Shown here: piece by piece, positions 26,532 through 40,150 of the stretch | Numbering within the stretch: the first letter of the stretch is position 1 | Layout: each line of letters starts with the position of its first letter | Source of the DNA: Methanomassiliicoccaceae archaeon | Lineage (GTDB): Archaea; Thermoplasmatota; Thermoplasmata; Methanomassiliicoccales; Methanomethylophilaceae | Direction of reading: 5' to 3' | Assembly: GCA_016284295.1 (NCBI GenBank) | Contig: JAEEOP010000041.1 | Location: 1-64,000, forward strand | Length of the DNA: 64,000 bases | The notes under the pieces: model-generated | Told to the model about the DNA's origin: nothing | Database searches by the model: none | Seen by the model: only the letters and a program-made list of their open reading frames with translations | Translations under genes and position numbers: made by a program

Positions 26532-26646
26532 ACTACGATCAAGGTCGAAAGACCTGTGACTTTAGTCGCTAGAATCAGGGTGACCTCTCTTAATAGCCGT
26601 ACCGCGACTCATCCTCTGCAGACCATGCGCATGGATGCATTGGGTG

Positions 26647-29600
26647 ATGAAAATGAACAAGACAATGGCCATCATGGCCGTAGCGCTGAGCGTCTTCACG
26701 GCGTTCTTCATCATTGGGATGGGGAGCGAACTGGAGGCCGAAGGGACCATCCAGGTCGACGGCGCATCATACAGCATCATAACCGATGCGGACACGGTCA
26801 GCTACACGGATGACAGCATCCCCGGCAAGAGGATCTACATAGACTCCCCGTCGGTGAAGGCGGATGCCTTCAAGGGCTGCACCACGATACAGTACGTCGT
26901 ATTCAGCGACAAGGTTAAGACGATAGGCGACAGCGCCTTCGAAGGCTGCAGCAAGCTGCTGTACGTCAAGATGACACAGGTCCAGTCCATAGGGGACTAT
27001 GCTTTCAAAGGGACCGGCATCATAAACAACAACATCTCCTCCGCTCTCACCTCCATAGGGAAGTACGCCTTCTCGGAGTGCAGCGGAATGTACAGCCCCA
27101 TCCTGTCCGGGACGGGAGTGACCGAACTGAAGGAAGGTGTCTTCAAGAACAGCGATGTGAAGATCGAGGACCTGAGGAACATAACGAAGATCGCAGGAGA
27201 CGCGTTCGAAGGCACCTCCCTGAAGGGACAGATCATCGGTGAGAAGCAGAAGGTGAAGCTCAACGGCATCCCTGAGATCACGCTCGGGGATTTCGACTTC
27301 AAGAACCTTGATGTAACTTCAACGAAGAACGTCCTCTACCTCGATTTCTGGGTGGAGCCCAACGTGATGCTCACCAAGACCGACACCAGCGGCACATCCG
27401 AATACCGCAGCGAGCTCTTCGTCTACAACACAGGAGACTACGCATGCCTGGTGCCCTACAACGAGGTGAACACTCACATCGATGCCAGGACCACGACACT
27501 CCATTTCCAAGACATCCTGGGCATGGATGACATAGTCCGCAAGAGCGGGGACGGCAAGCTGACGATGCCTGTTCCCAAGGTTGCGAGCGGCATGTTCAGC
27601 GCATGGTCCGTGGAGGGCCTGAACGGTAACGTCAAAGAGATAACGGAGGCACAATTCTGCGAGCTCGGGACGACGATAGAACCTATCGCATCCTTCGCGA
27701 CCAGAACGATAACCTACGACCACTCGCAGATCAAGGGCGTCACCGGACTGCCCTCCTCAACTACCTTCACCGTCGGGGACAGGTACGCCGAACTCGACGA
27801 CGTGGACGGATACGAGTTCTCCGGATGGAGGGTGGACGGCAAGTTCTACTCCGCCGGCAGTCTGATCGACACCTACTCGGACCACACCGCTGTCAGCGTT
27901 TGGGATGCACTGACATGCAAGGTCGAGATCATGGGTACGGACGGCAAGGTAACTGAGACGATCCAGGTGGAGAAGGGGTCCAGGCTGGACCTGTCAACCC
28001 TTGATTACGATGAGGCCGACGGCGAGGAGTTCATCGGATGGGCCCTCACCATGAACGGGCCGATGCTGGTGACCGATCCCCAGATCAACTCAGACCTCAA
28101 GCTCTATCCTCTCACGAAGGCCAGGCAGTCCTACACAGTCACCTTCGTCGACGACGGCAAGGTCCTGGGCACCCAGCAGTGCTACAAGGGAAAGCAGATC
28201 GCGATCGAACAGCAGAACCCTACCAAGGATGGGAAGATCTTCGAGAACTGGGTTCTGAGGGAGACCGGCACCAAGTACTTCCAGGGCGACAAACTGATGC
28301 TCAGCAAGGACATCGAGCTGGAGGCGGTCTGGAAGACCATCAAGGTCAGGTTGTACTATCACCTGGACCTGGTCGAGAGGTGCGAATACGATTGGGGGAC
28401 CATGGTCACCATCGGCAGCGAATCCGCCGTGAAGAGGGGATACGAACTGCTCGGATGGTCGCTGAACATGAACGGTGCCGTCGATTACCGCGACGGCGAG
28501 ACCGTGAGACTGACCGAGACCATGGAGCTCTACCCCTGCTGGGCGGAGCTCGGGAAGCTGAAGATCACCTGCCACGACTACAACGGCAAGATGACCGTCA
28601 AGGAGGTGGAGGAAGGCGATTCCTTCACGGTCCCTAAGCCCTCCGCCCGGGATCAGGGCGTGTTCCTCGGATGGTCGCTCGGGATGGACAGGCACGTGAA
28701 CTACACCCCGGGGGACTCCTTCGTCGTCTACAACGATGTGGACCTCTTCGAGGTGTGGGATATGGCCAGCAGCCACACGGTGGTCTGCCACGACCATGCC
28801 GGGGGCACCAGGACCGCGACCGTCGAGGACGGATCCACGTTCACCGTGCCGAGGTCCTCCGACCGCAGCGATGCGGTGTTCCTCGGTTGGGCCACCACAG
28901 CCTTGGGAGCAGTGACCTACCAGCCGGGAGACTACTTCAATGTCACATCCGACATGGACCTGTACGAGGTCTGGAAGATGGATAACAACTACAAAATCAC
29001 CATCCATGACCACGATAACATGACGACGGTGACCGAGGTCCCCAAGGGATCCAGGTTCACCGTCCCCAAACCGACCGAGATGACCGACGGGTTCCTCGGT
29101 TGGGCCACGACCTACGGCGGCACCGCCAGATACACCCCGGGAGATTCCTTCACGGTCACCGAGGACATGGACCTATACGAGGTGTGGAGCACCGTGACGA
29201 CGCTCTACGTCACCACGCACGACTACACAGGCAAGCAGACCATGACAGATGTGGAATCCGGAAAGAGGTTCACCGTCCCCAAGCCTGTCGCACGCGACCA
29301 GGCCACGTTCCTAGGATGGGCGACCTCCCCAGAGGGAACACCGATGTACACCCCGGGAGACTCATTTACCGTGACATCCGACATGGACCTCTACGAGGTA
29401 TGGAAGACCACCGACGTGTTCAGCGTCATACTCCACCGCTACGCCGGCGAGACGACCGTGTCCTCTGTCGAAGAGGGCAAGATGTTCACGGTCCCCAAGG
29501 GGTCCTCGAACTCGCAGGGGACCTTCCTCGGCTGGAGCCTGAAATCCGAAGGTACAGTGGACTACACGCCCGGCGACACCTTCGCCGTGACATCGGACAC

Positions 29601-31317
29601 ACACCTCTACGAGGTATGGAAGACATCCACCACCTACGACGTCATCCTCCATGATTACACCGGTAAGACCAAGGTGTCGATCGTCGGCAAGGACACCACG
29701 TTCACGGCACCGAGACCCTCCACCCGCGACGGATGGACGTTCTCCGGATGGGCCCTCACCTACAGCGGCTCCCCCGCTTACATGCCAGGTGACGCCATCA
29801 GAGTATCCTCGAACATGGACCTCTACGAGATCTGGTCGGACAGGTCGCAGCAAGTCGTAAGCCATGAGGTCACATGCCACGGATCCTCTGGCAAGACCTC
29901 CATCGCCAAAGTGACCGACAAGGGAACGTACACCGTACCGAAAGCCCTATCCGATTCCGAAGGCACCTTCCTCGGCTGGAGCCTCTCCAGGAACGGGACG
30001 GTCCAGTACACCCCTGGAGATTCCTTCACAGTGACCGAGGACACCGACCTATACGAGGTATGGGACACCACCGTCGAATACACGGTGACCGTCCACTACC
30101 ACACCGGCGAGTCCGAGTCGTCCAAGATAGTCTCCGGCTCTGCATACACTGTGCCTTCGGCATCCGCCCGCGACGGATACACCTTCATGGGCTGGTCCAC
30201 AAGACCCTCCGGATCTGCATCATACCTGCCTGGAGCACAGATTATCGTCGCCTCCGACATGGACCTCTACCAGGTCTGGACGCAGAAGCAGACGTTCTCC
30301 GTCACCGTCCACGACCAGAACGGTTCTACCTACAACGGATTCGTCGGAGAGTCATTGGACGTTCCGCTCCCGGCGATGACCAGGAACGGATACGACCACA
30401 TCGGCTGGACCACAGCGTACAACGGACAGACGGCACAGTACCCCGCACCCGGGACCGCTCAGACCACATCCTCCTGCAGCTTCTACCCTGTATGGAAGGA
30501 AAAGGAGACCGTGAGCATCATAGTCCACATGGCAGTCACCGACACCGTCAACCACACCGTGTACAAGGGAGACTCCCTGACGCTGCCGGCATCCTTCGGA
30601 AAGGTGTCCGGCAAGACCCATCTCGGCTGGACGCTGAGCCCTGACGGGACCGGCAGGTTCTTCTCGGCTGGATCGGCGATCCACCCCGAGGAGTCCATGG
30701 AGCTCTTTGTCTCCTGGTCCGAACCCGACATCATCAGGATCACCTTCATGAGCGACGGCACCCAGGTCTACTCGGTGAACGCATCCGCAGGCTCGACCTA
30801 CGACCTCTCCAAGGTCGGCACCCCCTCGAAGGAGGGATACGGGTTCCTCGGATGGAGCACCGAAGAGGGCTCCGCCAGGGTCGCCTACGATGAGAACGAC
30901 ACCATAGCGGCCACGGAGAGCATCACGCTCCATGCGGTCTGGGAGAAGCTGGTCGAGGTCACCTACCACAACGACGGGAAGACCGAGACCGAGTACTACG
31001 AGGCAGGCTCAGAAGTGACCCTCAGGAATCTCAGCAAGGACGGATACAGGTTCAAAGGCTGGTCCGCCACCACCGCCGGCCAGGCGCTTGAGAGCCCCCT
31101 GACGGTCTACAGGAACGTGGACCTTTTCGCGATCTGGGAGAAGGAGGAGCAGTCGTCACCGTCGGATGGGATCACTGTCATCGATGGCAAAAACACCAAT
31201 AAGGTCACCGAGAACACAGGGTCCGGTGGACCCATGGATTCCGGCACCATCGCGATTGCTGTTGCAGTCATCGCCGGAGTGATGCTGGCGCTCCTGTTCG
31301 TGGTGAGGAGGGCGTGA
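26647..31317 (+). CDS. Giant surface protein: signal peptide, BspA-like LRR segment, ~16 InlB/Flg_new B-repeats, C-terminal TM anchor
   Basis: Repeating xFLGWSxxxxGxxxYTPGDSFTVTxDxDLYEVW units; AFKGCTTIQ/AFEGCSKL LRR units; C-terminal GTIAIAVAVIAGVMLALLFVVRRA. Confidence 0.95.
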   Translation: MKMNKTMAIMAVALSVFTAFFIIGMGSELEAEGTIQVDGASYSIITDADTVSYTDDSIPGKRIYIDSPSVKADAFKGCTTIQYVVFSDKVKTIGDSAFEGCSKLLYVKMTQVQSIGDYAFKGTGIINNNISSALTSIGKYAFSECSGMYSPILSGTGVTELKEGVFKNSDVKIEDLRNITKIAGDAFEGTSLKGQIIGEKQKVKLNGIPEITLGDFDFKNLDVTSTKNVLYLDFWVEPNVMLTKTDTSGTSEYRSELFVYNTGDYACLVPYNEVNTHIDARTTTLHFQDILGMDDIVRKSGDGKLTMPVPKVASGMFSAWSVEGLNGNVKEITEAQFCELGTTIEPIASFATRTITYDHSQIKGVTGLPSSTTFTVGDRYAELDDVDGYEFSGWRVDGKFYSAGSLIDTYSDHTAVSVWDALTCKVEIMGTDGKVTETIQVEKGSRLDLSTLDYDEADGEEFIGWALTMNGPMLVTDPQINSDLKLYPLTKARQSYTVTFVDDGKVLGTQQCYKGKQIAIEQQNPTKDGKIFENWVLRETGTKYFQGDKLMLSKDIELEAVWKTIKVRLYYHLDLVERCEYDWGTMVTIGSESAVKRGYELLGWSLNMNGAVDYRDGETVRLTETMELYPCWAELGKLKITCHDYNGKMTVKEVEEGDSFTVPKPSARDQGVFLGWSLGMDRHVNYTPGDSFVVYNDVDLFEVWDMASSHTVVCHDHAGGTRTATVEDGSTFTVPRSSDRSDAVFLGWATTALGAVTYQPGDYFNVTSDMDLYEVWKMDNNYKITIHDHDNMTTVTEVPKGSRFTVPKPTEMTDGFLGWATTYGGTARYTPGDSFTVTEDMDLYEVWSTVTTLYVTTHDYTGKQTMTDVESGKRFTVPKPVARDQATFLGWATSPEGTPMYTPGDSFTVTSDMDLYEVWKTTDVFSVILHRYAGETTVSSVEEGKMFTVPKGSSNSQGTFLGWSLKSEGTVDYTPGDTFAVTSDTHLYEVWKTSTTYDVILHDYTGKTKVSIVGKDTTFTAPRPSTRDGWTFSGWALTYSGSPAYMPGDAIRVSSNMDLYEIWSDRSQQVVSHEVTCHGSSGKTSIAKVTDKGTYTVPKALSDSEGTFLGWSLSRNGTVQYTPGDSFTVTEDTDLYEVWDTTVEYTVTVHYHTGESESSKIVSGSAYTVPSASARDGYTFMGWSTRPSGSASYLPGAQIIVASDMDLYQVWTQKQTFSVTVHDQNGSTYNGFVGESLDVPLPAMTRNGYDHIGWTTAYNGQTAQYPAPGTAQTTSSCSFYPVWKEKETVSIIVHMAVTDTVNHTVYKGDSLTLPASFGKVSGKTHLGWTLSPDGTGRFFSAGSAIHPEESMELFVSWSEPDIIRITFMSDGTQVYSVNASAGSTYDLSKVGTPSKEGYGFLGWSTEEGSARVAYDENDTIAATESITLHAVWEKLVEVTYHNDGKTETEYYEAGSEVTLRNLSKDGYRFKGWSATTAGQALESPLTVYRNVDLFAIWEKEEQSSPSDGITVIDGKNTNKVTENTGSGGPMDSGTIAIAVAVIAGVMLALLFVVRRA
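27810..31140 (+). repeat. Array of about 16 InlB B-repeat/Flg_new units
   Basis: Counted …GW…W units from EFSGWRVDGK to RFKGWSATTAG. Confidence 0.85.
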
Positions 31318-31488: not shown

Positions 31489-33420
31489 ATGTCCACAATC
31501 AGACTGGGTAAGAACCACCTCAGATGGTGTTACGAATGCAACCTGCCTATCCTCGAGAAGGAGGAGTGCCCGGTCTGCGGAAGACCCACCGAAGAGGTCG
31601 TTCTCACGCCTCCTGGAGACTCCAGGCCCGCATTCAAGCACGACATCGACCTTCTCCGCGAGACCCTGGACCACGACTACGGCCCGGGCGCCGGAATGGC
31701 GGTCATACCGGACGACCACATCGTCATCCTCAGCAAGGCACCGTCCCTCGACAGGATGGACGAGGTCGTCATCGACGGAGCGGTCATCGCATCGTTCAGA
31801 TACGACATGGGTTCCGGCTGGAAGTTCGTCGCCAGGATGCAGGGCGCGTACCGCATCGGGAAATGCTTCTCGAAGGGATACGTCGTGTGCCACCCAGATG
31901 CGATACCTTTCATCAGAGAGAGCAAGAACCTCATGGCCCCAGGCGTCATCGATGCCGACCCTGACATAAAGTTCGGCGACGAGATCATAATCGTCACGGC
32001 CGATAGAGAGGTCATCGCCACCGGTATGGCCAAGATGACCGGGCCGGAGATGGTGGAGTCCACCAGAGGGGTCGCGGTGAGGACCAGGTGGTACAGGCCC
32101 GAGGAGTTCAGGGACCTGACTCCCAAGAAGAACTCCTGGGACGAGGCCGTCAAGGCCAACGAGGGGGTCATCAAGAGGAGGGTCGACGAGGCCGTCGGAT
32201 TCATCCACAAGACCATCGAGAAGAACAACCTCCCCGCCATCGTATCGTTCTCGGGAGGAAAAGACAGCCTCGCATCGTTGCTGCTCACCCTGGACGCAGG
32301 GCTGAAGCTCCCCATCCTCTTCGTGGACACCGGACTGGAGTTCGACGAGACCGTGGAGCACGTCCACGACGTCTGCCAGAGGCACGGATTACAACTCATC
32401 TAGGAGAAAGCACCCACTGACGCCTTCTTCGGCAACCTGGTCTACTTCGGGCCGCCTGCAAAGGATTACAGGTGGTGCTGCAAGACCAACAAGCTCGGAC
32501 CAACCGTCGGAGCGATCAACAAGAACTTCCCCGACGGAGTTCTCTCATTCATCGGACAGAGGAAGTACGAGTCCGAGCAGAGGAACTCCAAGCCCAGAGT
32601 GTGGAGGAACCCCTGGACCCCCGGACAGGTAGGGGCGTCGCCAATCCAGAACTGGTGCGCAATGCACGTCTGGATGTACATCTTCTACAAGAAGGAGCCC
32701 TACAACGTATGGTACACCAGAGGGCTGGACAGGATCGGATGCTTCCTGTGCCCCGCATCAGACCTCGCCGAGTTCGACGTCGTCGCCGGCAACAGCAAGA
32801 GGTGGGGGCAGTGGAACGAGTACCTGGAGAAGTACATGGCCGACCGCGGACTCCCCAAGGAGTGGAAGGAGTACGGCCTCTGGAGATGGAAGGATGCGCC
32901 CAAATCCATCAGGGAGGAGGTGCAGAGGGTCTCCGGCAAGGAGGTGTCCGAACTGACGAAGCAGACCAAAGCGCCGGAGAAGGGCCCGCTGACGATCAAG
33001 GTCCAGGAGGGATACTCCCCCTGCGTCGTGGGATACAGCATCGAGGCGGCCCTGTCCAGACCGATAGACCTGGAGAAGGTCAGGCCGTTCTGCCATGCGA
33101 TCACATGGATCGTCCCCGACAAGATCGAGGGCGACTTCATCGAACTCGGAGGCGCCACGCTGTACGCCGAGGGATCGATCATCAGCAAATCAGGATCGGA
33201 ACTAGATGCGAGAAGGACGATCGACCACATCTTCCAGCTGATAATGCGTGCGGAGCAGTGCGTCGGATGCGGGCTGTGCGCAGCCAGATGCAGGCCGGGG
33301 GCCCTCTACATGAAGGACGGAAAGGTCCACATCCACGAGGACGACTGCATATTCTGCAGGGAATGCTTCGGACCCTGCCCGTCGGTGAACTTCGCAAGGG
33401 GCGACGAGTTCGAGCAGTGA
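31489..33420 (+). CDS. PAPS-reductase-family protein (zinc ribbon + PUA-like + HUP PAPS reductase + 2x[4Fe-4S]) with one in-frame TAG (32401-32403, codon 305)
   Basis: ORF 31489-32403 and ORF 32599-33420 share one frame; the TAG joins …HDVCQRHGLQLI-[TAG]-EKAPTDAFFGNLVYFGPPAKDYRWCCKTNKLGP…; SGGKDSLAS motif before it, CVGCGLCAARCRPG after it. Confidence 0.88.
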
Positions 33421-33426
33421 AGGGCC

Positions 33427-34962
33427 ATGAAGCTCATAGCCCGCCACTCCGATGTGACCGTATCCGAGATGGCGGTCATCCTGAACAGCGACGACGCCCT
33501 CAAGCTCGGAGTCGATCATACCGACAGGGTGCGCGTCACGGGTGATTCGTCGACCATATGTGCCGTGGTCATAACCGATTCGATCGTGGAACCGGGGAAG
33601 GCTATCTTCCCGTCGCAGATCATGGAGAGATGCGGCATCGAGGACGGGGAGGAGTTCCTCATCGAATACAGCCCCATGCCCGAGTCGGTGAGGTCGATAC
33701 GCAGCAAGATCAACGGCAGGAAGCTGAACGGACAGGAGATCCGCTCCATCGTAAAGGACATCCTGGACGGCGGACTGTCCAGCAAGGAGATACTGTCGTT
33801 CGTGTCCGCGTTCAACGTGAACAACGCAGATCTGGAGGAGGTCGCCGACCTCACAAGGGCGATGGCAGATACCGGCAGCATGGTCGACTTCGGTTCCGAG
33901 AGGATACTCGACTTCCACAGCCTCGGAGGCATCCCCGGGAACAAGATCACACCGATCGTCGTGTCCATAGTGGCATCGCAATCGCTCATCATCCCCAAGC
34001 TGTCGTCCCGCGCCATCAGCAGCGCCTGCGGGACATCCGATTTCGTGGACACGTTCTGCGATGTCGAACTCGACACCGAATCCCTCAGGGCGGCGGTGAA
34101 GAAGACGGGAGGGGTGTTCGCCTGCGGGAACGATGATTATGCACCAGTCGGGAGCATCATCATCGATGCGGAGCGCCCCATGGGCATAGACCCCAGGCCG
34201 ATGATGCTCGCCTCGATAATGAGCAAGAAGGTGGCCCTGGGAACAACACATCTGCTGATAGACATCCCCATGGGCAAAGGAGCGAAGATCCCCGACATGG
34301 AGACCGCGGAGGGATTCGCGAAGGACCTGATCGGACTCGGAAGGATCCTCGGAGTGCGCATAGAATGCGCCGTCACCTACGCCGACCAGCCCCTCGGGCA
34401 CATGATCGGCCCCACTCTGGAAGCGAAGGAGTGCATCTCCATGCTGGAGACCGGGGACACCGAGTGCGCCGTCCTGGATAAGGCCTGCGGAATGGCCGGG
34501 ATCATCCTTGAGATGGCCGGCATGGAGAACGGAAGAGCGAGGGCCGAGGGGGCCATCACCTCCGGAAGGGCCCATGAGAAGTTCCTCCAGATAGTCGAGG
34601 CGCAGAACGGCAGCCATGATCTCAAATCGAACGACCTCTCCCCGGGATCGTTCGTCAAGGATGTGCATGCCAAGAGGGACGGGTTCGTCCAATACATAGA
34701 CAACGCCAGCATGGTCGCCATCGCCAAGGGAGCAGGCGCCCCCGAGGACCTGGGCGCCGGGATCGAGATACTTCACGAGAAGGGCGACAGGGTGAAGGAA
34801 GGGGATGTCCTGTTCAGGATCTATGCCGAGAACCAGGCCAAACTGGACAGGTCCGTGGAATCCGCAAGGTCCCGCCGTCCGATGCTGGTGACCAAGGATC
34901 CAGTGGATACAGCACCCCAATGCATGATACTGAAGAGGATATACGAGAGGTCCGAACAGTAA
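33427..34962 (+). CDS. deoA: AMP phosphorylase (archaeal, thymidine phosphorylase-like)
   Basis: DILDGGLSSKEILSFVSAFNVNNADLEEVADLTRAMADTG…HSLGGIPGNKITPIVVSIVA. Confidence 0.93.
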   Translation: MKLIARHSDVTVSEMAVILNSDDALKLGVDHTDRVRVTGDSSTICAVVITDSIVEPGKAIFPSQIMERCGIEDGEEFLIEYSPMPESVRSIRSKINGRKLNGQEIRSIVKDILDGGLSSKEILSFVSAFNVNNADLEEVADLTRAMADTGSMVDFGSERILDFHSLGGIPGNKITPIVVSIVASQSLIIPKLSSRAISSACGTSDFVDTFCDVELDTESLRAAVKKTGGVFACGNDDYAPVGSIIIDAERPMGIDPRPMMLASIMSKKVALGTTHLLIDIPMGKGAKIPDMETAEGFAKDLIGLGRILGVRIECAVTYADQPLGHMIGPTLEAKECISMLETGDTECAVLDKACGMAGIILEMAGMENGRARAEGAITSGRAHEKFLQIVEAQNGSHDLKSNDLSPGSFVKDVHAKRDGFVQYIDNASMVAIAKGAGAPEDLGAGIEILHEKGDRVKEGDVLFRIYAENQAKLDRSVESARSRRPMLVTKDPVDTAPQCMILKRIYERSEQ

Positions 34963-34997
34963 TCAACGTTTTTATGCGGTACTCATATACCGAGAGC

Positions 34998-35672
34998 ATG
35001 AAGGTGGACCCTAACGATCTGGCAGCGGCGATGGAGCACGATCCAGCTCTCATCGACGAGAACGATGCGCTGAAGTACCATGCGGGCCTGCTGGCCGTCA
35101 CCATGTACAGGGAGAGCCACGAGCTCTGGCTGAAAGGCGAGTACGAGAAGGCCAGGGAGATCAATTTCGAGGCCCACAAGATCACCGGATGCGACATCCA
35201 CCCCGGAGCCACCATCGGCAAGAGATTCTTCATAGACCACGCCACCGGCGTAGTGATCGGGGAGACGACCATCATCGGCGACGACGTCTGCCTCTACCAG
35301 GGAGTGACCTTGGGAGGAGTGTCCACCAGCAAGGGCAAGAGGCATCCCACCCTGAGGAACCACATCGTGGTAGGATGCAACGCATCCATTCTCGGCAACA
35401 TCACCATCGGCAACAACGTCCGTGTAGGTGCAGGATCGGTAGTCCTGAAGGACGTCCCCGACGACTGCACCGTCGTAGGAGTGCCGGGAAGGGTGGTCAG
35501 ATACAAGGGCCTGAAGGTCCAATGCGAGCTGAACCACTGCGACCTCCCCGACCCCGAGGAGGACGAGATCTCAAAGCTCCGCTCGGAGATCGAGATGCTG
35601 AAGAGAGAGATCGAGGAGCTCAAGAAGAGGCGATCCCGACACCCTGCATCCCTCCACAGGATCCATGCCTGA
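34998..35672 (+). CDS. cysE: Serine O-acetyltransferase (hexapeptide-repeat)
   Basis: GCDIHPGATIGKRFFIDHATGVVIGETTIIGDDVCLYQGVTLGG; start set after a TTTTTATG TATA-like box (ORF track gives 34920). Confidence 0.88.
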   Translation: MKVDPNDLAAAMEHDPALIDENDALKYHAGLLAVTMYRESHELWLKGEYEKAREINFEAHKITGCDIHPGATIGKRFFIDHATGVVIGETTIIGDDVCLYQGVTLGGVSTSKGKRHPTLRNHIVVGCNASILGNITIGNNVRVGAGSVVLKDVPDDCTVVGVPGRVVRYKGLKVQCELNHCDLPDPEEDEISKLRSEIEMLKREIEELKKRRSRHPASLHRIHA

Positions 35673-35724
35673 CGGCACCCAAGATAGATTTTATAATCGG
35701 GGCTGGATACGACACATCGATCAG

Positions 35725-37152
35725 ATGTCATTGATGATCCATAACACACTGACGAACTCCAAGGAGGAGTTCAGGACCATAGAGCCGGGCAAAGTCAAGA
35801 TGTACGTATGCGGTGTCACCGTCTACGACGACATACACATGGGGCACGCCAGATGCATGATCGTGTTCGACACCGTCGTCCGCTACCTCAGATACCTGGG
35901 CTATCAGGTCACCCACGTCACCAACTTCACCGACGTGGACGACAAGATCATCAACAAGGCGGCGGCCGAGGGAATTGACCCCTTGGAGCTGTCCGCAAGG
36001 TACATCGACAGATACTTCGAAGATTCATCGAAACTGGGAATCAACAGGGCGGACATCTACCCCAAGGCCAGCGAGTGCATCGGGGACATCATCGCCATGG
36101 TCCAGAAGATCATCGACAACGGATTCGGATACGTCACCAGCGACGGCAGCGTGTACTTCTCCATCGATAAGGTACAGAACTACGGAAGACTGGTCAAATC
36201 GAAGCTCGAGGACATGTCCTCCTCCGGAAGGGTCCAGATGGACGAGGAGAAGAGGAACCCCATGGACTTCGCAGTATGGAAAGCAGCAAAGCCCGGAGAG
36301 TGCTCCTGGGATTCGCCCTGGGGAAAGGGAAGGCCGGGATGGCACATCGAGTGCTCCGCCATGATCGACAGGTACCTCGGAGAGCAGATCGACATCCACG
36401 GCGGAGGGAACGACCTCATATTCCCGCATCACGAGAACGAGATTCTCCAGACGGAGGCTGTCACAGGAAAGCCGCTTGCCAACTACTGGATGCACAACGG
36501 TATGCTGCAGGTCAAGGGACACGGCATGACGAAGGAGGAGAAGATGTCCAAGTCCCTGGGCAACTTCTTCACCGTGAAGGACGTGGCCGCGAAGTACGAC
36601 CCCCAGACCATCAGGTTCTACTTCCTCAACACCCACTACATGAGCCCCCTCCTGTACGGGGAGGACATGCTCGAGGAGGCCAAAGCCGCAGACTCCAGGA
36701 TCATCAACTGCTACAAGGACCTCAAATCCTATGTTAAGAACGCCCCCGAGGGCGATGTGGATACCAACGACTGCTGCGACCTCATAGAATCGTACAGGCA
36801 GGCCTTCAGGGACGCGATGGACGACGACTTCAACACCCGCCAGGCGATTGAGGTCATCTTCCAGATGGTCAGGGCCCTCAACAAGGCCATGAACGAGAGG
36901 ACCCTCTGCAAGAAGTCCGCTCAGAAGCACCTCGACCTCCTGGACGAGTTCAACGGCATACTCAACATTATCCCCGAGGAGGAGAGCGACGACGGCACAC
37001 TGGACGATGTCATGTCCATCCTCATAGACCTCCGTGCGGAGCTGAGGAAGAACAAGATGTACGACCTCGCCGACATGATCCGCGACAGGCTGAAGGAGGC
37101 CGGAGTCGTGCTCGAGGACTCCAAGGACGGGGCAAAATGGAAGAAGCTCTGA
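35725..37152 (+). CDS. cysS: Cysteinyl-tRNA synthetase
   Basis: [36 protein letters not shown]…; KMSKSLGNF. Confidence 0.96.
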
Positions 37153-38069
37153 GGGCCAAGTCGGAACTGATCCTCTCGAAGGGACTCAGGGTCCCTGCGG
37201 GGTTCGACCATCCGATGGCAGAATCCGACGGAGAGGGCGGCGGCCTGATGATCATCTCGTTCGGCGACAGCCGGATGAGGATGAGGTATTCCGCCGATTC
37301 AGGCGACCTGGAGCTCAGGGAATCCGATGGGAGGTATTCCGTTCACAAAGGCAACGAATGTCTCATAGACGACGTCGGGTTCGTCAGGGCGTACTGCCAC
37401 TCGCCGTATCAGGCGAACGTGAACCTCACGAAGTTCGGCAGTGACGACGAGATATTGTCGTACCTGGACAGACTGGTGTCCACAGGCACCGTCGAGGGAA
37501 TACCGATAAGCGGTTGCTCGGATGCCGACAGGGTCTGCGAGGTCGTCTCCATGATCCATTCCAGATACCCGGACATCCCGATAGGGTACAGCGCATCTCC
37601 CGTGTCCAAAGATGATCTTCTGAGGCTGAAGGCTGCAGGTCTTTCCGAGTTCAAGATCACATTGGGCTCGACGATACCCCGCATCTTCGCACTTGTGAAT
37701 CCCGATGAGGACATGGATGCCATAATCGGATGCCTCAAGGACGCTGTGGAGGTCTTCGGAAAGGGGAAGGTCTGCACCGGAATCTCCGTTGGAATGAACG
37801 AGACCGACGAGGAGATGGTCTCCATGTTCGAGAGGATCAGCTCCGCCGGAGTCCTGACGGACCTGAAGGTCAAGAAGATAACCGCGAAGAACAGGCAGAG
37901 GTTCGAGGACGCACTCGGGAAGATAGAACCCGTGACCGTCGACAGGCTCTGCATGCTCGGCAGCAAGCTGAAAGAGGTCCAGGAAAGGAACGGCCTCGAC
38001 GCCAGGGACATGCACACGTTATGCTTAGCGTGCATGTGCTGCAACATCGTCCCGTTCAGAGATTGCTGA
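37137..38069 (+). CDS. Radical-SAM-like TIM-barrel protein lacking a recognisable CX3CX2C motif
   Basis: IPRIFALVNPDEDMDAIIGCLKDAVEVFGKGKVCTGISVGMNETDEEM resembles radical SAM C-terminal strands. Confidence 0.55.
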   Translation: MEEALRAKSELILSKGLRVPAGFDHPMAESDGEGGGLMIISFGDSRMRMRYSADSGDLELRESDGRYSVHKGNECLIDDVGFVRAYCHSPYQANVNLTKFGSDDEILSYLDRLVSTGTVEGIPISGCSDADRVCEVVSMIHSRYPDIPIGYSASPVSKDDLLRLKAAGLSEFKITLGSTIPRIFALVNPDEDMDAIIGCLKDAVEVFGKGKVCTGISVGMNETDEEMVSMFERISSAGVLTDLKVKKITAKNRQRFEDALGKIEPVTVDRLCMLGSKLKEVQERNGLDARDMHTLCLACMCCNIVPFRDC

Positions 38070-38976
38070 TCCTTCTCCTGGCATCCTCGAGAAGATCGCA
38101 GGACTTGCATCTGGAACCTACTGTAGGCTCCCCGCACTGGCAGAGATGAAGGTCCGCCCCTGCATACTCCTTGTAGAGCATGGGGCGCAATGTATCATAA
38201 GAAGAAAGGATGCTGTGCCTCGAACCGGGAGACCTGTCCTCCAGCTCGTCGACTATGCTCCTGTACTGATTCCTGAGGGCCTCCTGCCAATATGGGCACT
38301 CCCCATCCCAGTACTCCAGGCCGTTGACCAGGGCATACAGCAGGGTCTCCTTCTCCGGGATCAGCCTCAGAGGCAGGAACCTGGGAACCAGTCCGGGCTG
38401 GACCTTCTCGTGCGGTCCGAGCCTCGCCAGCCTCTCCACATCCCCTCTGACGAAATTCATCATGACGGATTGGGCCATGTCGTCCAGGTTGTGGCCGGTG
38501 GCCAGATACTTGGCGCCGATCTTCCTGGCCTCGTCGTTCATCAGCCTCCTCCTGAACACCCCGCAGTAGGTGCAGGGACTGCTGTCCCTGGACAGAGGGA
38601 CGATCTCGTCCATGGTCACGCCCAGTTCGGAGAACGAGCGCAGATGGAACTGGATGTCCCTCTCCTCGCAGAACCTCCTGACGATGTCCACGCTGGGAGG
38701 GCGGTAGTTAGCGATCCCCTCGTCTATGGTTATCGCATGGACCCCCACTCTGTTGCGAGGCCCGAAGACATCCGATATTAGCTTCAGTGCTACGATGCTG
38801 TCCTTCCCTCCGGACACGGCGACGGCGATGTCCTCGCCGGGATAGACCTTGATCTGCTTCCTGATCTCCCTCTTGACCCTCTTCTCCACGAATCTGGAGA
38901 AATGCTCAGGGCACAGGTGCATCCCGTTGTACCTGATGAACGTGACCGCCTCGGAGTTGCACTGATCGCATCTCAT
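38056..38976 (-). CDS. tRNA 2-thiolation family protein (TtuA/Ncs6-like PP-loop ATPase)
   Basis: AVSGGKDSIVALKL, N-terminal CDQCNSEA, CTYCGVFRRRLMN, C-terminal zinc cysteines. Confidence 0.92.
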   Translation of the reverse strand: MRCDQCNSEAVTFIRYNGMHLCPEHFSRFVEKRVKREIRKQIKVYPGEDIAVAVSGGKDSIVALKLISDVFGPRNRVGVHAITIDEGIANYRPPSVDIVRRFCEERDIQFHLRSFSELGVTMDEIVPLSRDSSPCTYCGVFRRRLMNDEARKIGAKYLATGHNLDDMAQSVMMNFVRGDVERLARLGPHEKVQPGLVPRFLPLRLIPEKETLLYALVNGLEYWDGECPYWQEALRNQYRSIVDELEDRSPGSRHSILSSYDTLRPMLYKEYAGADLHLCQCGEPTVGSRCKSCDLLEDARRRISNL

Positions 38977-40150
38977 CCGAATCACCGGAGCCCATCTCCT
39001 CGTCGAGGATCTCCTCCAACTTCTTCGCCAGGACCTTCGAGGGTATATCCGGCAGCGATATGAGCGTGGACCTTCCGTTCCCATCGGAGGACACCTTGGT
39101 CCTCACCAGGCTGACCTTCTCCAGCCCCTGCACATGGCTCCAGAACTGGGTGTGCTTCCTCGCGGGGACATCATACTCCTCGCAGACGACCGCGTAGGTC
39201 TTCTCCGCCGAGGACAAAGGGATCACGACGTTCTGCTTCATGGCGCGGGCCACTGCCAACAGAATGAGCTTCTTGTTCAGGTCCAGCGACCTTATCTTCG
39301 ATTCGGACACCATGCTGTAGATGCTGGCCTTCGCCTCGCGGACGTTCTCCACGGTGATCTCTCCGTCGGTCATCCCCTCGGCTATTATAGCCGACCTCTC
39401 CAGCAGCTCCACGGCCATTCTCGCATCGCCATAATCATCTGAGCTCTCCGCGATCTGGTCGATGGCGTCGTCGGATATCCTTCCGGGATACAGCGCCTCC
39501 TCGGCTCTCTCCTTGACTATCTGCTTCAGCTCGTCGTAGTTGTACCTGTCAAACTTGACCAGGGTGGTCCTCTTGAACGTAGACAGCGAGGCCTGGTCCA
39601 TCATCTCGTAGACGGACACCTGCGCCACCAGTATGAGGGAGACGGGGGCGGGTTTGTTGACCTCGTCGGACAGCCTTGTGATCTGATAGATTATGTCCAC
39701 GGTATTCTTCTTCAGCAGCACGTCGACCTCGTCCAATATGATGACCAGCGGCCTCTTGTTCTTCAGGAGGTGGTTCTTGAACACGCGAGCCATATCCTCG
39801 GTGGAGAATCCCCTGTCGGGGTACCCCTGGTCGAAGAAGCGTATCAGGTTGAGCAGCACCGAGTTCTCCGAGTTGCTGTTCCTGCAGTTGACGTAGATGA
39901 TGTCTATCGGCGTCCCTTTTCCGTTGAGGAACGCCTTCATGTCGTCGCAGAACCTCCTCGCCGTGGCCGTCTTGCCTGTTCCGACGGATCCCATCAGGAA
40001 CGCGTTGCACGGACGGTCGTAGTCCACCAGCGGGCGGAAGAGCGTCTCCAGCTCATGCATCTGGGCGTCCCTGCTGACAAGGTTCTTCGGAACGTAGTTG
40101 CTGTCGAATCTGGAGGGATCCTTGATAATGCTGGAGGACTTCTCGAACAT
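38906..40150 (-). CDS. cdc6: Orc1/Cdc6 replication initiator
   Basis: SRDAQMHELETLFRPLVDYDRPCNAFLMGSVGTGKTATARRF…VIILDEVDVLL; C-terminal WH domain; start trimmed to MFEKSSSIIKD. Confidence 0.94.
   Translation of the reverse strand: MFEKSSSIIKDPSRFDSNYVPKNLVSRDAQMHELETLFRPLVDYDRPCNAFLMGSVGTGKTATARRFCDDMKAFLNGKGTPIDIIYVNCRNSNSENSVLLNLIRFFDQGYPDRGFSTEDMARVFKNHLLKNKRPLVIILDEVDVLLKKNTVDIIYQITRLSDEVNKPAPVSLILVAQVSVYEMMDQASLSTFKRTTLVKFDRYNYDELKQIVKERAEEALYPGRISDDAIDQIAESSDDYGDARMAVELLERSAIIAEGMTDGEITVENVREAKASIYSMVSESKIRSLDLNKKLILLAVARAMKQNVVIPLSSAEKTYAVVCEEYDVPARKHTQFWSHVQGLEKVSLVRTKVSSDGNGRSTLISLPDIPSKVLAKKLEEILDEEMGSGDSDEMRSVQLRGGHVHQVQRDAPVP

What the first reader, a model, noticed from the sequence alone, without database searches (positions are those of the whole stretch)
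31489..33420. PAPS-reductase-family gene with a single in-frame TAG at codon 305
The two ORFs called by the track are one frame split only by TAG at 32401-32403. Conserved sequence runs straight through (…HGLQLI-[X]-EKAPTDAFFGNLVYFGPPAKDYRWCC…). The TAG lies inside the HUP/PAPS reductase domain, close to the catalytic loop, in what looks like a core-metabolism gene next to cysE and cysS. The full frame gives zinc ribbon + PUA-like + PAPS reductase + 2x[4Fe-4S].
Basis: partly seen in the sequence, partly recalled or inferred. Interest (0 to 1): 0.8.

Follow-up and report, generated by a model that had tools for sequence, protein, structure and literature searches.

The report
Enzyme gene read through TAG codon
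A sulfur-enzyme-like gene in a gut-type methanogen carries one TAG "stop" codon that the cell most likely reads as the rare amino acid pyrrolysine; this is a new example of a known habit of these archaea, not a new mechanism.

Summary
In detail: one 643-codon frame (31489-33420, +) is interrupted only by TAG at 32401-32403 (codon 305). It is a full-length member of NF010368/PRK13795. The genome is a Methanomethylophilaceae archaeon with a complete pyrrolysine cassette beside a TAG-bearing mtmB. No relative shares this TAG: 28 of 29 family relatives have Glu there, and 15 of 16 other members of the order have something else (V, I, L, A, M, F, R). So it is a one-base GAG-to-TAG change in this lineage at a tolerant site, not a conserved catalytic Pyl. 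TAG behaves as a sense codon here. Among 203 conserved genes the only apparent TAG terminator is mtmB's Pyl codon (TGA 175, TAA 17), against 22 of 130 in relatives without a PylS above cut-off. Citrate synthase carries in-frame TAG at three sites across the genus, one kept by a five-species clade. The 65 codons between this TAG and the next possible start are 97-98% identical to relatives, which argues against a split gene. Best reading: routine Pyl insertion after a near-neutral mutation. An assembly error or recent nonsense mutation at this one site cannot be excluded without reads or proteomics.

The parts
31489..33420 (+). Whole gene, 643 codons plus TGA, with TAG at codon 305
31528..31578 (+). 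N-terminal zinc-ribbon-like cysteines (C14, C17, C27, C30)
   Evidence: invariant columns; no Pfam hit for the ribbon itself
31876..32088 (+). PUA domain, residues 130-200
   Evidence: PF01472, 64.3 bits; archaeosine TGT similarity
32239..32757 (+). PAPS_reduct (HUP-type) domain, residues 251-423, with SGGKDS loop at 255-260
   Evidence: PF01507, 129.7 bits; invariant columns
32401..32403 (+). In-frame TAG, codon 305, read most likely as pyrrolysine; GAG or GAA in 28 of 29 family relatives
32404..32598 (+). Residues 306-370: between the TAG and the first possible restart codon, 63-64 of 65 residues identical to each of five relatives
32476..32751 (+). CC (330-331) and CxxC (418-421), invariant, arranged as in 4Fe-4S APS reductases (comparison from general knowledge)
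33256..33384 (+). 4Fe-4S dicluster (ferredoxin) domain, residues 590-632
   Evidence: PF12838, 29.5 bits, cut-off 27
33418..33420 (+). TGA terminator

Best explanation
This is an intact gene in an archaeon that decodes TAG as pyrrolysine. A single G-to-T change turned a Glu codon (GAG) into TAG. Because Pyl-tRNA(CUA) is made and TAG is hardly ever used to terminate, the ribosome inserts pyrrolysine at position 305 and continues to the TGA, giving a full-length 643-residue protein. The position accepts many residues across the order, so the change is probably near-neutral. Shown: the frame, the pyl cassette, avoidance of TAG as a terminator, other in-frame TAGs in the genus, and constraint on both sides of the TAG. 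Inferred: that Pyl is really inserted here, how efficiently, and that the protein stays active.
For: Complete pyl cassette: tRNA-Pyl(CUA), PylS, PylB, PylC, PylD above cut-off, next to mtmB with its TAG. TAG terminators 1 of 193 conserved genes, that one being the mtmB Pyl codon, against 22 of 130 in relatives without PylS above cut-off (Fisher p about 7e-10). Internal stops in conserved genes of this genome: three TAG, no convincing TGA or TAA. Citrate synthase: in-frame TAG at three sites in eight genomes of the genus, no TGA or TAA; the five genomes with the site-58 TAG form a clade with pairwise dS 0.4-2.1 and low dN/dS. dN/dS about 0.06 before and 0.05 after the TAG, like controls. Residues 306-370 nearly identical to relatives.
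Against: The TAG is a singleton, so constraint cannot date it. No reads, transcripts or peptides were available. The release factor aRF1 keeps its NIKS and YRCDS motifs, so some termination at TAG is likely. No special RNA structure follows the TAG (z = -0.81), though none is thought to be required.
Confidence: 0.85

Rival explanations
1. The TAG is an error of the metagenome assembly or of its reads; the true codon is GAG.
For: Singleton in a 45-contig assembly; one base from the family's usual codon.
Against: Random errors should make TGA and TAA as well; in 69,218 codons of conserved genes only TAG interruptions were convincing. In-frame TAGs shared by several species elsewhere show that TAG is tolerated in this genus.
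Confidence: 0.06
2. A recent nonsense mutation or start of a pseudogene: the gene is truncated at residue 304 in this strain.
For: Singleton; too recent a loss would leave no trace in dN/dS.
Against: No other lesion in the frame, constraint equal to relatives on both sides, and the cell has the machinery to decode TAG.
Confidence: 0.05
3. Two separate genes: the first ends at the TAG and the second restarts downstream.
For: A mechanical ORF starts at GTG 32599.
Against: Residues 306-370, which neither product would contain, are 63-64 of 65 identical to relatives although 22-32 nucleotides differ; they include the invariant CC pair. No relative is split.
Confidence: 0.01
4. Pyrrolysine at 305 is adaptive: it gives this enzyme a new property or couples its output to the Pyl supply.
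For: It replaces a residue that is almost always Glu within the family.
Against: Shared by no relative; the position is variable across the order; similar sporadic TAGs occur in unrelated genes.
Confidence: 0.03

Closest known systems
Predicted Pyl-containing proteins of 'Ca. Methanomethylophilus alvus' (Borrel et al. 2014, PMC4153887)
   Same: Same order; complete pyl cassette; very low TAG terminator use (1.6% there); in-frame TAG in 16 genes beyond the methyltransferases, about half with TAG-free homologues in the two other genomes studied.
   Different: Neither this gene nor citrate synthase is in their Table 7; here TAG sites are also compared across 31 genomes of one genus.
Pyrrolysine in tRNA-His guanylyltransferase of Methanosarcina by neutral evolution (Heinemann et al. 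2009; reference seen, paper not held)
   Same: Sporadic Pyl codon in a gene outside methylamine metabolism, with sense codons in relatives (from memory).
   Different: Another gene and lineage; that case was tested biochemically (from memory), this one was not.
NCBIfam NF010368 / PRK13795 proteins (PUA + PAPS_reduct + ferredoxin)
   Same: Full-length match above the curated cut-off.
   Different: TAG at codon 305; the reaction of the family is not established (model name: hypothetical protein).
Assimilatory PAPS/APS reductase (CysH)
   Same: HUP-type PAPS_reduct fold, CC and CxxC cysteines.
   Different: Far below CysH model cut-offs, no ECG[IL]H tail, extra RNA-binding-like and ferredoxin domains.

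Membership tests
Pyrrolysine-decoding organism | tRNA-Pyl with CUA anticodon and PylRS catalytic domain | tested here: met
   tRNA-Pyl L037:2996-3066; TIGR02367 261 bits, cut-off 178
Pyrrolysine-decoding organism | PylB, PylC, PylD biosynthesis genes | tested here: met
   TIGR03910, TIGR03909, TIGR03911 all above cut-off
Pyrrolysine-decoding organism | Methylamine methyltransferase with in-frame TAG | tested here: met
   MtmB, PF05369 692 bits across the TAG
Genome-wide use of TAG as a Pyl sense codon | TAG (almost) never used as terminator | tested here: met
   1 of 193 conserved genes in a 437-kb sample, that one being mtmB's Pyl codon; control 22 of 130. Sample only, not the whole genome
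Genome-wide use of TAG as a Pyl sense codon | Pyl found by mass spectrometry at TAG positions | not testable with these tools
   no proteome available
Neutral Pyl site (tRNA-His guanylyltransferase type) | Sporadic TAG with sense codons in relatives at a tolerant position | tested here: met
Neutral Pyl site (tRNA-His guanylyltransferase type) | Activity independent of Pyl | not testable with these tools
   needs purified protein
NF010368 / PRK13795 | Score above curated cut-off over the full length | tested here: met
   630.5 bits, cut-off 588, residues 3-637
CysH (assimilatory PAPS/APS reductase) | Score above the cysH model cut-off | tested here: not met
   TIGR00434 35.7 against 165.1; TIGR02055 44.6 against 235.3
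CysH (assimilatory PAPS/APS reductase) | Catalytic ECG[IL]H tail | tested here: not met
   absent from the translation

The most novel reading that the evidence does not exclude
Pyrrolysine at 305 was selected because it changes this RNA-binding-type, PAPS-reductase-like enzyme or makes its output depend on Pyl supply, so that an enzyme outside methylamine metabolism is coupled to it.
Probability: 0.03. Interest if true: 0.75.

Novelty: new member of a known kind. Interest (0 to 1): 0.35.

Why it matters
It adds a conserved enzyme, and more strikingly citrate synthase, to the genes that depend on reading TAG as pyrrolysine in gut methanogens; standard annotation cuts such genes in two. The citrate synthase sites (three TAG positions in one genus, one kept by a five-species clade) are a better test than this singleton of whether Pyl residues persist by neutrality or because they are useful.

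Tried and rejected
RNA structure after the TAG: z = -0.81, not unusual; no significant Rfam match near the gene. Altered release factor: aRF1 keeps NIKS and YRCDS; five columns separate PylS-bearing from other genomes in a small alignment, which lineage alone could explain. Conserved Pyl site: rejected. The TAG listed for the G009 orthologue lies beside a frame break in that assembly, not at codon 305; the TAA listed for a G025 fragment is in a 46%-identical copy at a contig edge and was not followed. The reverse comparison (this genome's ORFs against G018) and the control contain wrong-frame ORFs that give false internal stops of all three kinds; internal-stop counts were therefore trusted only for the three G000 cases also checked by orthologue searches. 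The PylRS N-terminal domain model finds nothing, which I recall is usual for this order. The literature search did not find a held paper on a full archaeal Pyl code.

Full report
What is there. The frame 31489-33420 (+) encodes 643 residues with a single in-frame stop, TAG at 32401-32403 (codon 305), and ends at TGA. Read through, it is a full-length member of NF010368/PRK13795 (630.5 bits, cut-off 588) with a PUA domain (130-200), a PAPS_reduct domain (251-423) and a 4Fe-4S dicluster domain near the C terminus. Four N-terminal cysteines, the SGGKDS loop (255-260), a CC pair (330-331), a CxxC (418-421) and the ferredoxin cysteines are invariant in a 30-sequence alignment. The CC/CxxC arrangement resembles 4Fe-4S APS reductases (general knowledge), but the protein is far below the CysH models and lacks the ECG[IL]H tail. 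Its PUA part is closest to archaeosine tRNA-guanine transglycosylase, so an RNA-directed sulfur-transfer role is as plausible as sulfate reduction; that is inference. The AlphaFold model (mean pLDDT 83.5) puts residue 305 in a beta strand, 303-307, and matches PUA proteins and PAPS/APS reductases.

Where it is. The window lies in a 1.86-Mb, 45-contig, 95% complete genome. Named relatives of the gene, from a separate collection, are mostly Methanomethylophilaceae or Thermoplasmata MAGs, many from ruminants. On contig C36 the genome carries tRNA-Pyl(CUA) and PylS, PylB, PylC, PylD, just after an mtmB with its in-frame TAG. PylS is above cut-off in 27 of 31 genomes of the genus; two of the other four (G003, G009) hold clear partial PylS matches and two (G002, G006) are incomplete genomes.

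The site in relatives. At codon 305 the 29 aligned family relatives have GAG 23, GAA 5, GCA 1; only this genome has TAG. Outside the family, 1 of 16 order members has Glu, the others V, I, L, A, M, F or R. So the TAG is one G-to-T step from GAG in this lineage, at a position where many side chains occur.

Is TAG sense here? I compared 437 kb of this genome with 800 kb of the relative G018. Among 203 conserved genes (69,218 codons) the terminators in this genome were TGA 175, TAA 17, TAG 1, and that TAG is mtmB's Pyl codon. In relatives whose PylS hits stay below cut-off, the same script gave 22 of 130 and 16 of 126 TAG terminators; Fisher p is about 7e-10 for 0/192 against 22/130. Strict internal stops in this genome were three TAG (this gene; citrate synthase C36:23839; a TPR-repeat protein C3:51825), no TGA, and one TAA that immediately precedes a methionine and looks like a start-site artefact.

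Genus-wide support. Citrate synthase has in-frame TAG at three positions: 291 (this genome), 13 (G030, G018) and 58 (G026, G025, G017, G029, G006), with no TGA or TAA in any orthologue. The five site-58 genomes form one clade (support 0.98) with pairwise dS from 0.4 to 2.1 and dN/dS of about 0.05-0.14, so that TAG has been kept in a constrained gene over long divergence and is not an assembly error. The TPR protein has a TAG in this genome and one in G024; a paralogue of the present gene has one in G012.

Constraint across the TAG. dN/dS against the nearest relatives is about 0.06-0.08 before and 0.05 after the TAG, like pairs of relatives without it. Residues 306-370, between the TAG and the first possible restart, are 63-64 of 65 identical to each of five relatives although 22-32 nucleotides differ. 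A split gene is therefore very unlikely.

What remains open. The change is a singleton, so constraint cannot date it. A recent nonsense mutation or a consensus error would look the same at this site; the genome-wide pattern makes both less likely but does not exclude them. The release factor looks intact, so decoding may be partial.

Known or new. Borrel et al. 2014 (PMC4153887) described the same pattern in the related 'Ca. M. alvus': 1.6% TAG terminators and 16 predicted Pyl proteins beyond the methyltransferases; they also proposed that an in-frame TAG is a stable mutation in such a background. Neither this gene nor citrate synthase is in their table. Pyl in Methanosarcina tRNA-His guanylyltransferase is the classic neutral case (reference). 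I recall a 2025 report of a full archaeal Pyl code but could not read it. This finding is a new instance of that known behaviour.

Noticed in passing
L148 (G000:C36:23363-24709) and orthologues L150, L153, L161, L163, L165, L169, L175: Citrate synthase carries in-frame TAG at three different sites across the genus; the site-58 TAG is shared by a clade of five species. A second citrate synthase copy in the own genome (G000:C21:26649-27968) also has one TAG.
   Followed up: partly
G000:C3:49009-52470: A 1154-codon TPR-repeat protein with one in-frame TAG; the G024 orthologue also has one TAG, site not compared.
   Followed up: partly
L194 (G012:C39:26938-28800): Paralogue of the present gene in a sister species with an in-frame TAG at its codon 152.
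   Followed up: no
window 32392-32436: Codons around the TAG are unusually rare for this genome (TTA 0.8% of Leu, CAA 6%, ACT 6%, AAA 11%); the 16-codon stretch ranks 13th lowest of 627 in the gene. Meaning unclear.
   Followed up: partly
window 26635-31317: 1560-residue protein with many repeated blocks of the type '...FLGWA...YTPGDSFTVT.DMDLYEVW', a predicted signal-like start and a C-terminal hydrophobic segment; looks like a repeat-rich surface protein.
   Followed up: no
window 33427-39084: Neighbours: nucleoside-phosphorylase-like, CysE-like hexapeptide, CysS, radical SAM, and a TtuA-like thiolation enzyme on the minus strand: a sulfur and tRNA gene neighbourhood.
   Followed up: no
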